Below the pieces are notes generated by a model that was not told where the DNA came from, did no database searches, and worked only from the letters and a program-made list of their open reading frames with translations. 64,000 nt of DNA from positions 726,808-790,807 of the forward strand of contig NW_011887305.1 in assembly GCF_000151315.2 (NCBI RefSeq). The letters run 5' to 3'. Positions 19,177 to 26,600 of the stretch are shown in pieces (positions within the stretch are counted from its first letter, which is position 1; each line of letters opens with the position of its first letter). The position numbers and the translations under genes are program-made. The DNA comes from Capsaspora owczarzaki ATCC 30864 (taxonomy: Eukaryota > Opisthokonta > Filasterea).

Positions 19177-22100
19177 TCAAGCCTGCCCGCCAAGCACCTT
19201 TTGCTTCAACGCAGTCAGCTCTTGCTCGAGAGCACGCAAGCGCGCCAAGACAGCACTTGAATCGGAGGCGTCGCCAGCCGAAGCAGGAGTTGATGGCGAC
19301 CCTGAAGGCAGTGGCGAGGCAGTCATTGTGGCAGCAGCGCCCAGAACGGTCAGACCATTGGGGGAGACATACGACACGGCTCCTGCTCGCGTGGGTTGGA
19401 AGGCAGCCGCAGCTGCCGCGGTAACAGGCTCGGGACCCGCGTACAGATTTCCATTCAGCTCTGCCAACGAGATTCGCGGAGTCGCATTCTGATACAGCCA
19501 CTTTTCGTAGTTGGCCTTTCGCGACGCGTACCACTCGTCTTCCAGCATGGAGAAGTAGACTGTGGGAGTGTTTCATGAGCGGGTGGTGAGCAATTCAGCC
19601 CCACTTGTCGAATCTGCATCCAACAACGCAAGCAAAGAGCAACAAACGAAACAGCTAGGCAACGTACTCGTGTCTCTGTTATTCCCCTTGGTGATGCACT
19701 TGCTTCGGAGAATACCCTGTGCAGACACAACCGTCGTCAGAATCGAAACGCTCGAAACCGGATTGGTCCAAATTGGACTCCCCAACAATCACATCTACAA
19801 TCCAGTCAACCCCCTACCTCATAGACAAACCCCATGCGGGCGGCAGACTTGCGCGACTTTGCATTGAGCGCATTCGCCTTCCATTCGACGCGGCGGTAGC
19901 CCAGCACCTCAATTGCATGGCGCGCGAGCAAGTAGGCCGCCTCCGTGTTGGCCTCGGTGCGCTGAGCGGATGCAAAGTAAAAGATGCTCCCGAGCTCGAT
20001 CGATCGGTCGTTCGGCTCCATGGTCATGTACGAGATGGATCCGACAATCTTGCCAGATTGCTTTGACTCGACAATCAGCATGAGCTGCGTCGCCGGCTTG
20101 AGCAGCGCATAGTGCGCCTGCATGGCTTCGGCGGTCTCCCACGGACCGTACTTCATGTACGTCCACACGGCAGCCTTGGTCGCGTCGCCGTGCGTCTCGG
20201 CAAAGAGCACCGGCACGTCCCGCTCCAGCTCGAGCGGTCGGAGTCGGCAGTACGCGCCCTCCAGCGTGGTATCCGGCGCCGGCAGCTTGGCCTGCCCCCA
20301 ATCATCCACCATACCATGTCACAAGTTGAGCTTCAGCATTAACAAATGACAAGGTTTCAGTGTCGGAGCAGACGACATGATACAGTATTGTGCGTCCGAA
20401 GATGAAAACTGCAATATGAGGTTGGAAATAGAAACGGACGATTTGGTTTTTAAACATTTGAAATGGTACAAATTTGTAGTGCGATTTTGGACAAAATGCT
20501 ATCGATTTGGTTTTTAAAAACACGAAACTGTCCAAACTGCGCCCGAGTTGGTTTTTGCCAAGATAAGGTCTGGTTTTTTGGCGCGAAAACTTTGGAATAA
20601 AAGCTTGAAACTGAAAATTCGCACTCTTGGTTGGGAAATTGCCACTTCATGTTTGGGATTTGCAAACACCCCCAGACGAACCTGCTCTGTAGCCATGCCC
20701 AAACGTCAAAACGAGGCGCAGGCCACCGAATCACGCGCGCCGCGGAAGTGTGTCCATCTAGAAGACCCCGAACGGAAGCGGATCATCGACTTGGCTGTTG
20801 ATCGCGCCTTGCCTCTCGTCACGGTCGCCAGCATGCTCCATCACCCCATCAGCACTGTGTCCAACGTAGTGCAACGTTTCAAGGAGCGCGGAGAGTGGAC
20901 GTCACATCACGTCAATCCCAAGGGATGCCGTGTGCTCACAGCGGAGCATCTCCATTTTCTCGAGATGGAGCTCGACAAGAACGTCAATGTGACCAATCAA
21001 GAGCTCCAGGACCTCCTCCTGACGACATTTGGCATTCAAGTGCATCAAGCAACCATCGGGCGTGCCATGTTACGACAGGGCTTCACGTTCAAGCGCGTGT
21101 ATGAGCAGGTCAAGGTGAAAAATTCGCCTGAAATCAAAGCCCAACGCAAGAAATGGGCTGAGCTCTTCGAGGCTTTCCAGACACCTGTGGATCGCTTGTT
21201 CTACGTGGACGAGAGTGGATTTAATGCGAATCAGCATCGAACGCGAGGTCGATCTCGCAAGGGCGCGCGCGCAATCGTTCAAGTTGGCAGTATTCGTGCA
21301 GCGAATTTCACGCTCATTGCAGCGATCGGAATGAGCGGCGTTGTGTTGAATGAGATCCAGCTCGGAGGCGTGACTGGCCATGTCTTTGCGGAGGCAATGA
21401 CGAAGCTGTTTGACAAGCTCGAGGCAAAAAACGCCGTCGACACCGCCGCGTCTGGCATCGCTGTGGATGAGCTCCCAGTGCAACAGCTTGAGCCCGACCT
21501 CCCCCTTACAAACGTGGTTGAGGACAGTGTGTCGATCAGTAATGCAGTTCACATGCCACTGCTGACGTCCGGTGCAGCGTCGTCCCAACCACCTGCCCCT
21601 CCCGCTGCAGTTGTGTCGTCTGCTGCGTCTGCAGCTGGCGGGTCAGCTCCTGCTTCCACCTCTGCTTCCTCTGCATCCACCTCTGCTTCCACCTCTGCTT
21701 CGACGACCAGAAAGAAGCGCCGTTCTCGTCGCAGGATTCTCGACGATGATGACAACGATGATGGCGGCGTCTACGTTCCACCACACGAAGAACTCATTCA
21801 AGACGAGATTGATGAGCACAATGACAATACTTCCTATTTCGTACCGAGCGAAGAGCACCCAGGTGTCAGCTTTCCGGGACATCATCGCTACAAAGCCTGG
21901 ATCGTGCTCGACAACGCGCGCATTCACAAGACACCCGAAGTGCGCGAGCTTTTTGCACGCCGCGGGTATGGGATGCTCTTTCTGCCTCCGTACTCATCGT
22001 TCTTGAACCCGATCGAGTATGTCTTCAACCAAGTGAAGGCTGCGTTCAAGCGCTCCCGGCTGGAACCGAACGAAACAATCTCAAGTCGTATTACCGCTGC

Positions 22101-23247
22101 TGTTGGTACCGTGACGGCAACGCATTGCCAAAACACTATCACGCATGTTCAGCTCAAGTACTTTAATGCTTGTCACGAGATGCACGATGTGCTAGATTAG
22201 TTGGCGTGCTCTCCTTCGAAAGCTCCCTCAATGGCGCCCGCTCGCCTGTTTTGGGTGGTCGTTTGATGTGATCGTCCGTGTCATGTTACATGTATAAATA
22301 CTGTACATGTATTATTGTACATCCATTTCAAATCATGTTTATTCTGCAACAAGCATCTGCCAAAGACTAGTCGATGGCTTTCAGGAGAACACCCCACAGT
22401 CCGGTCGGCCTTGCGTCCTTTCTTCACTCTACCCGTAAACCTTCATAAAACAAACATAGTTAAGCCTATTTATACATGCATGTACATGTATTGAGCGTAT
22501 GCAAGCTGGAGCGCTCCACTGTGGAGTGCACATTGCGTTGTCATTGGTGCTGCAACTTGCTGGTCGTTAGGAATGATCGGAACAATCCACTCGGCATACG
22601 ATTGCCACCAATTTAATGACACTATGATAAACTATGCAAATGCTAATGCTTACACCGAAATGGCTCGTGAGTACGAGCCCTGGGTGGTAAAGACGTCGCT
22701 GTGGAAGTAATTCATCAAAACTGTAGTTCGAGCTCTTCCCGAGCCCTAGCTTTCCCGCTAGTCACCCCAGCATCTAATGACCTTCCAAGATACATGATTC
22801 AATTCAAATACTTCCTGAAGTTGTTGGTAATTCTAACATCTCAAGTGGGTTAATTCGAAATACAAGCTTGCAAAAACCAACTCGTTGAAAACCAAATCGA
22901 ACGCACAAAAACCAATTACGGAAAAAACCATTTTTCTCGCACTTTCAACCAAGCTACTTTTTTCCAGTCCGATTTTCCTCACTTCGTCCGCTCTAATTTC
23001 CAACCTCGCCTGCTGTGATTTCAACCTCGACTGCATAATACTGTATCATCCCGATCCCGACTCAATTTGAGCTGTTTGCTCCGCCTACTGTGTGATTACG
23101 ATTGACAAATCCCCCATCCCCAGCATCCGGCGAGGGATGCACTGTTTGAATGCTTAGAGAAAAATGCAGGACTTTCTTGCTTACGGGCGTGGAGACAACT
23201 TGGAGGCCGAGCGTGGTGCCGGTTGGCTGAAAAGGGATGTACGACAT
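19177..23247 (-). CDS. GNAT-family (RimJ/RimL-like) N-acetyltransferase
   Basis: Minus-strand exons are about 23247–23185, 20291–19819, a short exon near 19727–19672 and 19559–19177. Exon 1 gives MSYIPFQPTGTTLGLQVV and joins in phase 0 to AKLPAPDTTLEGAYCRLRPL, which is the usual start of this family. The acetyl-CoA fold follows: WTYMKYGPW, IVGSISYM, SIELGSIFYFASAQRTEANT, YRRVEWKANALNAKSRKSAARMGFVYEG, then NRDT and YFSMLEDEW. These proteins acetylate amino groups of proteins or small molecules; the substrate is unknown. A C-terminal extension of about 90 residues ends in a short coiled coil (LARLRALEQELTALKQKV). Intron 1 is 2.9 kb and contains a whole Tc1-like transposon in opposite orientation. 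Alternatively the start is an ATG at 20312, which would leave exon 1 unexplained. Confidence 0.8.
20383..20565 (+). repeat. Left terminal inverted repeat of the Tc1-like element
   Basis: Starts CAGTATTGTGC next to TA. It contains two direct copies of CGATTTGGTTTTTAAA (near 20438 and 20503) and an inner box CGAGTTGGTTTTTGCCAAG. This suggests an IR/DR arrangement with several transposase binding sites, as known for some Tc1 elements. Confidence 0.88.
20695..22200 (+). CDS. DD34E transposase of the Tc1-like element
   Basis: 501 residues from the ATG at 20695 (MPKRQNEAQ). The N-terminal half has two helix-turn-helix segments: RKRIIDLAVDRALPLVTVAS with ISTVSNVVQRFKERG, and VTNQELQDLLLTTFGIQVH with ATIGRAMLRQGFTFKRV. 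The catalytic triad is D172 (FYVDESGFN), D406 (WIVLDNARIH) and E441 (FLNPIEYVFNQVK), with 34 residues between the second Asp and the Glu, which is the Tc1 pattern. D172 and D406 are 233 residues apart, much more than the roughly 90 usual for Tc1. The extra part is an Ala/Ser/Thr-rich segment, a basic RKKRRSRRR cluster that could be a nuclear localisation signal, and an acidic DDDDNDD stretch. Codons are intact to the TAG stop. Confidence 0.93.
   Translation: MPKRQNEAQATESRAPRKCVHLEDPERKRIIDLAVDRALPLVTVASMLHHPISTVSNVVQRFKERGEWTSHHVNPKGCRVLTAEHLHFLEMELDKNVNVTNQELQDLLLTTFGIQVHQATIGRAMLRQGFTFKRVYEQVKVKNSPEIKAQRKKWAELFEAFQTPVDRLFYVDESGFNANQHRTRGRSRKGARAIVQVGSIRAANFTLIAAIGMSGVVLNEIQLGGVTGHVFAEAMTKLFDKLEAKNAVDTAASGIAVDELPVQQLEPDLPLTNVVEDSVSISNAVHMPLLTSGAASSQPPAPPAAVVSSAASAAGGSAPASTSASSASTSASTSASTTRKKRRSRRRILDDDDNDDGGVYVPPHEELIQDEIDEHNDNTSYFVPSEEHPGVSFPGHHRYKAWIVLDNARIHKTPEVRELFARRGYGMLFLPPYSSFLNPIEYVFNQVKAAFKRSRLEPNETISSRITAAVGTVTATHCQNTITHVQLKYFNACHEMHDVLD
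22865..23043 (-). repeat. Right terminal inverted repeat of the Tc1-like element
   Basis: Read on the minus strand from 23043 it begins CAGTATTATGC and carries GAGGTTGGAAAT, CGATTTGGTTTT and the inner box CGAGTTGGTTTTTGCAAG, in the same order as the left repeat. The first 65 nt align with a few small gaps; the central part has diverged more. Confidence 0.88.
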
Positions 23248-23601: not shown

Positions 23602-26600
23602 TCACAAAAGCGCTCCAATTTCGCGGATTGCTGTTCCATCCTCAAAGTTTGTCAGAGCTTTGACGAGCTGCGTAAAGCTTGGTCGTAGTTCTGGGATGGA
23701 GTTCCAGCAACTAAGCATCAAGATAAACAGGTCAGTTGAGCAGTGCTCCGGCATAGACGGTCGACCACCAGCCTCCACATGAGCCAGTGCCTCAGCGCCG
23801 TTCATCTTGCCGTACGGCATTGCGCCGTAACTGGAGCATTCCCCTACCAGCATGCGCCAATAAAAAGTCAAATCTCGACGCAAGAGCAAGTATCAGCGGA
23901 AAATGACGCGACTTACAGGCTGTGACACCAAACGACCAAACATCGGACATGGACGAGAACTTGCGGAAGGTCATTGTTTCCGGTGCCATCCACTACAATC
24001 ACCAACACAATCAGAATCACATACTACCAGCAGTGGAGCCATCTGACTCAACCCACCTTCACGGGAAGTTTGCCTCGCGTTTGCATGCGATAGTAATCTT
24101 GCTCATCCGTCAATTCGCGGGAAAGCCCGAAATCGGCAATCTTGACCACCATTCCTTGCCCCACAAGGCAGTTGCGCGCGGCAAGATCACGGTGCACAAA
24201 GTGCAGCGTACCCAAATACTCCATACCGAGAGCAATCTGGCGAATGGCATGGATTTGCTCGTTGTGCGTCCACCAAAGCGAGTGAGCCTGGGACTTTTGC
24301 AGCAGTGTACGCAAGTCGCCGTACTGCACAAACTCCAGCAGAACGAGATGAGGCTCTGACTCAACCAGAGCCGCAAGAAGGCGCACGACATTCGGATGTA
24401 CAAACGGAGCCATCAATTTCGCCTCAGCCTCAAAGTCTTGGCGAGACTTCTCGTCAGCGTCGGCCTTGGAAGACTTGACTGCAACCAGCACGGTTGGAGA
24501 CGCTGTAGGTTCAAGCAAGGCTCGAGCTCTTGTGGGCAACACGTTGAAAAGCACTTGACCCAGTGACACATCGCCAAATTCACCACTGGCAAGGTGCTTC
24601 CCAATGGTCAAGCCTTCGCGAACGCGACGAGAATTGCTGCCGGCAACATACGCGCTCGCATCATCGTCAACCACCTCCTCTGGCGGGGCGGTCGGGACAG
24701 CTTGATACGACTGTTGTTGACCGATCGCCGCTGGGGATGGAATGTCCGCTTTGTCGTGTGCTCCAGCCGAGTGGTTTTGAGGGGAAGTTGTCACTTCATC
24801 AGCCTCCTGGTAGATTGGATCGGAAGAGTCCTTCGCTTCTGGCTGCTGCTTCTGGTCGGAGGTTGAGCCGCCATCCTCGTTGTGAGATTCGGTCGAATCG
24901 GGAATAGGGGAGATTGTCACTTCTTCAGCCTCCTGATACATGGGATCGGCAGCATTCTGCGATTCTGGCTGCTTTTGGCTGGGCTTGGCGGAGGTTGAGC
25001 CGTCATCCTCGATGGGAGATTCACTCGAATGGGCCAGAGGAGACATTGTCATTTCAATAGTCGTCTGATCGATGACTGGACTGGCAGAGTCCTTCGGTCG
25101 TATGACAGAGCGTTGCGAGCGCCGGCGCCGCAACACGATGAAGACCACCACAATGAGTGCAATGACTGCCACGGACGCAACGACAGCAGCGATGATGGCT
25201 GCTGAAGATGAAGCTGACTCTTGAGAACCATCGCCTTGTTGTGCAATGGACGATGCAACGGATGCAGCAGATGCTGATGCGGTTGAAGCAACAGAAGCGG
25301 AGAGCGCCGAGGAAGCGGAAACAAGCGACGCGACAGATGCGGACGCCGTTGATGCGATTGACGCAGAGGATGCGGTAGCAAGTGAAGCAAAGGATGCCGA
25401 GATCGCCGAGGTAGCCGAAGCAAGAGATGCAACAGAGGCAGCCGAAGCAGATTGCGTGGACGCGACTGAAGCGATGGAAGCAAAAGGAACACAAGATCCA
25501 CCCAGCATGCCAGAACCGTCATAGCACTGAGTGCATACAGACGACGAAGTGCAGTACAGGCAATTGGTCTCGCAACACGCACTGGACCCAGCGGCATAGC
25601 AGGTGGCACAGACTGTATCACACTCTACAACACAAATGTCAGCAAAGTGAACAAAATGGGAATTGTGGTCATCTCGAACTCTTACTGTAAGGTTGGGATG
25701 CACTGCCGTAGGTGCTGGGCGGAGCAACATTGTTGTCACCAAACGTAAAGTTGTTGGGGGCCAGATATGGGTAAGAAAGCGACAACGCCAAGGCATTTGG
25801 CAACCCCTTGAACAGACCCGGCGGCAAAGTCGTGATAGGATTGTTTTGCAAAGCCCTGCAGGTACGCAAAAAGTAAGAAGCGATCGAATGCGTGCAATGA
25901 GAGTTCATACTTACAAGGTAGTTAGCGCAGTCAGGCCTGTGAATGAAAAATCGGGAATGCTAGTGATCTGATTGCCGTCTAGATGCCTAAAAATGGAATC
26001 GCAAACGAGTGAGCCGTCTGTTCGTAGCCGTCCTGTCGGTTGTTTGCTTACAGATCTGTCAGCGCAGCAAGGTCGGTGAATGCGCCAGCAGGAATGCTGG
26101 TGATCTGGTTGTTTTCCACAGATCTACCGATATAGTCAGAAACGAGTGAGCCGGTTGTGCGTGGTACATCATGTGTTTGCTTGCTTACAGGTAAGTCAGC
26201 GCCGTCAGGCCGGTGAATGCGTCAGCAGGAATGCTGGTGATCTGGTTGATGCCGAGAGACCTACGGATGGAGTCATAAACGCGTGAGCCGTCTGTACGTA
26301 GCCTTTCCTGTCGGCTGCTTGCTTACTTACAATTCAGTCAGCGCAGGGAGGCCAGTGCATGCGGCAGCAGGAATGCTGGTGATTTGATTGTTTTGCAGTA
26401 CCCTACCGATAGATTCATAAACGAGTGAGCCGTCTGCTCGTAGCCTTTCCTGTCAGTTGCTTGCTTACAGGGAGGCCAGCGCGGTCAGGCCGGTGAATGC
26501 GTTGACCGAAATGCTGGTGATCTGGTTGGTATACAAAGACCTGCCAATAGAGTCATAAACGAGTGAACCGGTTGTGCGTGGCTCATCATGTGTTTGCTTG

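What the first reader, a model, noticed from the sequence alone, without database searches (positions are those of the whole stretch)
20383..23043. Complete-looking Tc1-like transposon with long IR/DR ends
Both ends (CAGTATTRTGC) and the flanking TA were found, with inverted repeats near 180 bp and a fully open transposase. Most Tc1 elements have short ends; long ends with internal direct repeats are the IR/DR class. Open frame plus intact ends suggests recent or current mobility.
Basis: partly seen in the sequence, partly recalled or inferred. Interest (0 to 1): 0.75.

Follow-up and report, generated by a model that had tools for sequence, protein, structure and literature searches.

The report
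Recently mobile DNA transposon in Capsaspora
This is a complete, recently moving cut-and-paste jumping gene in Capsaspora, a single-celled relative of animals; its family is very probably already catalogued, but it has unusual repeat-array ends and a large floppy insert inside its enzyme.

Summary
A 2,661-bp transposon lies at 20383-23043 between TA duplicates in Capsaspora owczarzaki, with CAGTATTRTGC ends and a 501-aa DD34E transposase. The assembly holds 13 places of the family; 10 have both ends flanked by TA. Two pairs of copies at unrelated sites are identical over the whole element. One-TA unoccupied relatives exist for the C22 and C20 copies, and unoccupied relatives for the C9 copy; one further site carries damaged alleles that suggest imprecise excision. 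For the window copy itself the evidence is its identical twin only.

Two corrections. First, it is not one of the host's canonical Tc1-like families: with two siblings it forms a separate IS630-Tc1-mariner lineage, which I infer to be the published Cobalt1-3 (Carr & Suga 2014). Second, the ends are not the two-repeat IR/DR type: an imperfect 59-bp inverted repeat is followed by five inward TGGTT motifs per end, and the siblings keep this layout with different motifs.

The transposase carries about 145 extra, mostly disordered residues with a basic cluster between catalytic D1 and D2; the 52 bacterial relatives that could be measured and the host's two Tc1-like transposases lack it.

The parts
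20381..20382 (.). left TA of the target duplication
   Evidence: read directly; TA on both sides in 10 of 10 copies with both ends
20383..23043 (+). whole transposon, 2,661 bp
   Evidence: similarity of 10 full copies stops exactly here
20383..20441 (+). left outer inverted repeat, about 59 bp, imperfect
   Evidence: local alignment of the ends
20444..20632 (+). left array: inward TGGTT at element positions 62, 126, 167, 189 and 246
   Evidence: binding role inferred
20695..22200 (+). transposase gene, 501 aa; D172, D406, E441
21430..21876 (+). insert between catalytic D1 and D2 (residues about 246-394), low-complexity, basic cluster RKKRRSRRR at residue 339, then an acidic run
22201..22860 (.). 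3' non-coding stretch, function unknown; no Rfam match
22875..22951 (-). right array: inward TGGTT at 93, 114, 130, 150 and 165 from the right end
   Evidence: binding role inferred
22984..23043 (-). right outer inverted repeat, about 60 bp, imperfect
23044..23045 (.). right TA of the target duplication

Best explanation
An autonomous cut-and-paste DNA transposon of the IS630-Tc1-mariner superfamily (DD34E, TA target), recently mobile in Capsaspora owczarzaki ATCC 30864, most likely a copy of the published family Cobalt1. Inferred mechanism: helix-turn-helix domains of the transposase bind the outer repeat and several inward TGGTT motifs at each end and pair the ends; the RNase-H-fold DDE core cuts beside CAGT and joins the element to a TA, preferably A-TA-T, which is duplicated. 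The basic cluster in the disordered insert may be the nuclear localisation signal. The donor gap is sometimes repaired imprecisely. Shown: anatomy, TA on both sides, near-identical copies at unrelated sites, unoccupied relatives of some sites, constraint on the core. Inferred: binding to the arrays, nuclear signal, excision route, the name Cobalt1.
For: 13 places in the genome, 10 with both ends and TA; 0 to 2.4% divergence in 55 pairs; window copy and C4a identical over 2,661 bp, C18 and C2 over 2,683 bp. Unoccupied relatives: C22 site, 239 of 240 bases with one TA; C20 and C9 sites. Site with a 16-bp right-end remnant on C4 and a damaged copy on C25. Open frame in 8 of 12 copies; non-synonymous changes depleted in the core, 7 of 16, p=0.011. 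DDE_3 E=1.4e-21, DD34E, Mos1 fold E=4.9e-9. Cobalt1: first 300 bp give diversity 0.0128 (0.0132 for 312 bp) against 0.013 published, and 8 of 12 copies identical to another there.
Against: No observed transposition; no unoccupied relative for the window copy (40 of 65 candidates scored). Non-synonymous changes in the insert are not depleted (24 of 36, p=0.22). The AlphaFold model has mean pLDDT 59. For Cobalt1: 13 places here against 17/17 published ends, 8 of 12 identical against 16, Tajima's D -0.18 here against +0.326 published; different sequence sources, but not a sequence comparison.
Confidence: 0.85

Rival explanations
1. It is one of the two published Tc1-like families (CoTc1 or CoTc2), as 'Tc1-like' would suggest.
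For: TA target, DD34E; UniRef calls the sibling protein P0003 a Tc1-like transposase; the NCBIfam IS630 model scores this and a canonical Tc1-like protein alike (132 and 129 bits).
Against: The genome has two other canonical Tc1-like families, 69% identical to each other and remote from this one. CoTc2 was published with no identical copies and diversity 0.022, CoTc1 with 41/42 ends and 0.007, against 8 of 12 identical and 0.0128 here.
Confidence: 0.08
2. The near-identical copies are products of draft assembly or of segmental duplication, not of transposition.
For: Two copies hold 100-N gaps and three lie on contigs of 12-23 kb; C25 may contain a misjoin.
Against: Similarity stops exactly at CAGT beside TA; the flanks of the identical pairs do not match each other; unoccupied relatives show the same junction.
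Confidence: 0.04
3. The terminal motifs are transcription signals of the transposase gene or composition bias and not transposase sites.
For: No binding data; motif sequence differs between sibling families.
Against: Both ends carry them, inward on opposite strands, although only one gene is present; dinucleotide shuffles of the ends seldom reach the excess; canonical Tc1-like elements of the same genome show none.
Confidence: 0.2

Closest known systems
Cobalt1 (Cobalt superfamily) of Capsaspora owczarzaki (Carr & Suga 2014, PMC4007536: parts 1-6 of 7 of the text read; Suga et al. 2013: not held, not seen)
   Same: Same culture, TA target, similar 5' diversity (0.0128-0.0132 here, 0.013 published), many identical copies; sibling pattern of one larger, one smaller and one single-copy family.
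   Different: Sequence not compared (supplements not available); copy count 13 places against 17/17 ends, Tajima's D of opposite sign.
Canonical Tc1-like elements of the same genome (L040, L036; probably CoTc1 and CoTc2)
   Same: DDE_3, DD34E.
   Different: D1-D2 spacing 90 against 233; best match 38% over 50 aa (L040); no inward terminal array.
Bacterial IS630-type transposases (Psychrobacter, Poribacteria and others)
   Same: D2-E part up to 57% identical over 46 aa; DD34E.
   Different: D1-D2 spacing 79 in 52 of 52 measured; no insert.
Sleeping Beauty (IR/DR ends) and Mos1 mariner
   Same: Predicted fold (Mos1 E=4.9e-9; Sleeping Beauty catalytic domain E=2.2e-3); long ends with internal repeats as in IR/DR elements.
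   Different: Two direct repeats per end in Sleeping Beauty (PMC7827188, passages); five short motifs per end here; large insert in the core.

Membership tests
IS630-Tc1-mariner superfamily | DDE transposase of the DDE_3 kind with DD34E spacing | tested here: met
   PF13358 E=1.4e-21; D406-E441 with 34 between
IS630-Tc1-mariner superfamily | insertion at TA with TA duplicated | tested here: met
   10 of 10 copies with both ends; one TA in the unoccupied relatives of the C22 and C20 sites; the C9 relative read has TG
IS630-Tc1-mariner superfamily | terminal inverted repeats | tested here: met
   59 bp imperfect, score 41 against a shuffle best of 32 in 200
Tc1 family in the narrow sense | Tc1-type second HTH (PF01498) over its cut-off | tested here: not met
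   15.6 bits, cut-off 31.5; canonical L040 39.6
Tc1 family in the narrow sense | groups with the host's canonical Tc1-like transposases | tested here: not met
   groups with its two siblings and P0004 (98/96 and 99/99); unrooted tree of 14 rows, 139 columns, with 8 of 56 readable bacterial rows
IR/DR elements (Sleeping Beauty type) | two transposase-binding direct repeats per end, the outer one at the tip | tested here: not met
   five TGGTT motifs per end; no direct repeat of the tip reported
IS630 (NCBIfam NF033545) | model score over its cut-off | tested here: inconclusive
   132 bits, cut-off 100, but the canonical Tc1-like control L040 scores 129, so the model does not separate the two
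Cobalt1 | sequence identity to the published family | not testable with these tools
   supplements and Suga et al. 2013 not available
Cobalt1 | 5' diversity, identical copies and copy number as published | tested here: inconclusive
   diversity agrees (0.0128-0.0132 against 0.013); identical copies 8 of 12 against 16; 13 places against 17/17 ends; Tajima's D -0.18 against +0.326
Autonomous active transposon | transposase-dependent excision and integration | not testable with these tools
   needs an assay

The most novel reading that the evidence does not exclude
The lineage is a distinct class of eukaryotic IS630-type transposons. Its transposases carry a 145-290-residue disordered insert with basic and acidic tracts inside the RNase-H core between D1 and D2. 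Its ends are arrays of many short inward repeats whose sequence has been replaced between sibling families (TGGTT, TGAAC, GGATT/TTGGA) while the layout stayed. Transposase DNA-binding domain and end array would then have co-evolved as a pair, and assembly would use many weak sites per end and not two strong ones.
Probability: 0.35. Interest if true: 0.6.

Novelty: already known. Interest (0 to 1): 0.38.

Why it matters
As a mobile element it is ordinary and very probably catalogued. Two features deserve a specialist's look. Three sibling families keep the same end layout with different repeat words, a natural series for studying how a transposase and its binding sites change together. And the catalytic core carries an insert of 145 to 290 residues between D1 and D2; the insert domains of other DDE transposases that I recall (no call) lie between D2 and E. 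The unoccupied and damaged sites add DNA evidence of movement to the copy-similarity and expression evidence of the published survey.

Tried and rejected
IS630 membership by NCBIfam: rejected as evidence, since the canonical control scores alike. Short non-autonomous derivatives (MITEs): none seen by the exact end pattern; of 27 end matches 24 belong to the family (20 ends of full copies, one each at C25, C4b, C4:1644126 and the C4:520341 remnant) and 3 (C1, C7, C15) show no further end similarity; by my own arithmetic about 1.6 such matches are expected by chance. RNA family in the element: none at gathering score. Relatives in the protein collection: three searches gave only two named Capsaspora proteins, a near-identical unnamed one (P0001) and one unnamed fragment, P0004; the search works by shared exact words, and only the 7,995 candidates sharing most words were scored. 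Viral contigs: none. PDB by sequence: chance-level hits only, the best transposase a Sleeping Beauty subdomain at E=0.85. First idea that the element was CoTc2: dropped after L040 and L036 were read. Regular phasing of the terminal motifs: autocorrelation clearly beat its shuffles in one sibling's left end only (L021, lag 22: 0.452 against a 95% level of 0.353); other ends were at or near their level, so no phasing is claimed.

Full report
WHAT IS THERE. The element runs from 20383 to 23043 (2,661 bp), with CAGTATTGTGC at the left, CAGTATTATGC (reverse complement) at the right and TA on both sides. The window lies in a 27.46-Mb assembly of 29 contigs. The host is Capsaspora owczarzaki ATCC 30864: annotated proteins of this family and of a sibling carry that name, and the annotated copy CAOG_09202 (P0002) lies on a 12,808-bp contig, the length of contig C22 here.

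COPIES. Of 16 BLAST pieces, 15 belong to 13 places of this family and one to a sibling. Ten places have both ends and TA on both sides (C14=window, C4a, C22, C20, C9, C5, C18, C2, C3, C13; C3 and C13 contain a 100-N gap). One lacks the last 34 bp (C25), one stops at position 1,179 (C4b), one is a 66-bp left remnant (C4:1644128). The tool's counts are lower bounds. Among the 11 longest copies, 55 pairs differ by 0 to 2.4%; the window copy and C4a are identical over 2,661 bp, C18 and C2 over 2,683 bp, and C5 and C25 differ at 1 of 2,631. A search with joined flanks of nine copies found all 18 flanks at their own places, and the flanks of the identical pairs did not match each other (40 of 65 candidates scored). 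The target is A-TA-T: A before the TA in 9 of 10, T after it in 8 of 10.

UNOCCUPIED AND DAMAGED SITES. The C22 copy has an unoccupied relative on C12 (L075): 239 of 240 bases agree across the junction, with one TA and no element; the wider stretch is 90.8% alike. The C9 copy has three unoccupied relatives (C18, C14, C13; 95%), the C20 copy two over its whole joined query (C5 94%, C10 88%) and some shorter ones. I read one junction of each: C5 keeps the TA; the C9 relative on C18 has TG in its place. A weaker match across the C5 copy's junction (C4:1769323, 80%) was not read. These are paralogous repeats, not strains. The window copy had none. At one more site, contigs C25 and C4 are 98.8% and 98.3% alike on the two sides of the element (1,176 and 2,198 alignment columns). 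C4 keeps only the last 16 bp of the right end and lacks some 20 bp of the left flank; C25 keeps the element without its last 34 bp, followed by a second copy of about 32 bp of the left flank. I read this as imprecise repair after excision. For C25 a draft misjoin of an occupied and an unoccupied haplotype is as possible, and would itself imply an unoccupied allele.

CODING STATE. Start to natural stop is open in 8 of the 12 copies that carry the start; C22 is frameshifted, C3 and C13 hold gaps, C4b is cut. Against random mutation, non-synonymous changes are fewer than expected in the core (7 of 16; p=0.011) but not in the insert (24 of 36; p=0.22). The numbers are small.

TRANSPOSASE. DDE_3, D172-D406-E441, 34 residues between the last two. 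The AlphaFold model has low overall confidence (mean pLDDT 59, pTM 0.48), but the order of strands and helices is that of an RNase-H fold, with a mostly disordered stretch (residues about 265-390 under 50) between the helix after D1's strands and the strand before D2. Foldseek's best matches are Mos1 transpososomes (E=4.9e-9), then SETMAR and, at E=2.2e-3, Sleeping Beauty catalytic domains. D1-D2 spacing is 233 here, 242 and 382-383 in the two siblings, 85 in the unnamed fragment P0004 and 90 in two canonical Tc1-like transposases of the same genome. Of 364 bacterial or archaeal relatives 80 loci were kept; 56 gave a readable frame, D1 was found in 52, and the spacing was 79 in all 52. The insert holds RKKRRSRRR followed by an acidic run; that this is a nuclear localisation signal is inference. 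The end of the insert (SEEHPGVSFP) is shared with the closest sibling.

ENDS. Beyond the 59-bp outer repeat, TGGTT occurs five times in the first 260 nt of each end, pointing inward, never outward in this copy, against 0.31 per 250 nt in the window; 10 of 10 copies with both ends keep five and five, and C9 also has one outward match. The C17 sibling has TGAAC ten times in the first 420 nt at its left and eight times at its right end, with no outward match in the first 260 nt; the single-copy sibling (L021) has GGATT six times at the left and TTGGA six times at the right end within 260 nt. Dinucleotide shuffles reach the observed inward excess of the best word in 0, 0 and 1 of 1,000 (window, C17, L021) with ends cut at 250 nt, in 3, 0 and 17 at 200 nt and in 2, 0 and 0 at 320 nt; for the two canonical Tc1-like families in 305-439 and 367-931 of 1,000. 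That these motifs bind transposase is inference.

NAME. PMC4007536 (parts 1-6 of 7 read) lists TA-targeting families in this culture: pogo-like Cop1-5, CoTc1-2 and Cobalt1-3. This genome has two canonical Tc1-like families, 69% identical, and pogo-type DDE_1 hits at other places. That leaves Cobalt for this lineage of three: this family, one with three copies over the whole query plus fragments (C17/C6b 97.5% and C17/C1 96.3% identical), and one with a single full-length copy. Cobalt1, 2 and 3 were published with 17/17, 9/9 and 1 copies and 5' diversities of 0.013, 0.032 and none. The first 300 bp here give 0.0128 and 312 bp give 0.0132; 8 of 12 copies are identical to another there (published 16), and Tajima's D is -0.18 against +0.326 published. 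This is a consistent inference with some disagreement, not a sequence comparison.

NOVELTY. Searches for the family in print listed PMC4007536 as the one paper with the Capsaspora family names. I saw nothing in the parts read on the arrays or the insert; two searches on such features were seen as listings only, plus passages of PMC7827188. The supplements and Suga et al. 2013 were not available, so I cannot say that these features are unpublished.

Noticed in passing
L014 (C25) and L072 (C4:520325-521010): Two homologous contigs carry different damaged states of one insertion: a 16-bp right-end remnant on C4, and a copy without its last 34 bp plus a repeated stretch of left flank on C25.
   Followed up: partly
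L066:201-266: A 66-bp left end of the element beside TA, followed by unrelated sequence: another possible excision or repair remnant.
   Followed up: partly
window 19806-20312 (-): A GNAT acetyltransferase frame (PF13302, E=2.3e-16) starts about 70 bp from the insertion, so the element sits just upstream of it.
   Followed up: partly
P0002 (CAOG_09202), contig C22 copy: The annotated 432-aa protein lacks most of the insert that other copies encode, and this copy is frameshifted there; probably a spurious intron in the gene model.
   Followed up: no
PMC4007536, results on Tajima's D: The text names CoTc2 as significantly negative, while Table 3 marks CoTc1 (-2.669***) and gives CoTc2 -1.124 without a mark.
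   Followed up: no
sibling copy on C6 (L025/L027 joined): Its two 85-bp ends are 97.6% alike, against 79% in the C17 copy: possible conversion between ends.
   Followed up: no
window 24048-25796 (-): An open frame that by eye looks like a receptor-type tyrosine kinase with a serine/alanine-rich stretch; not searched.
   Followed up: no
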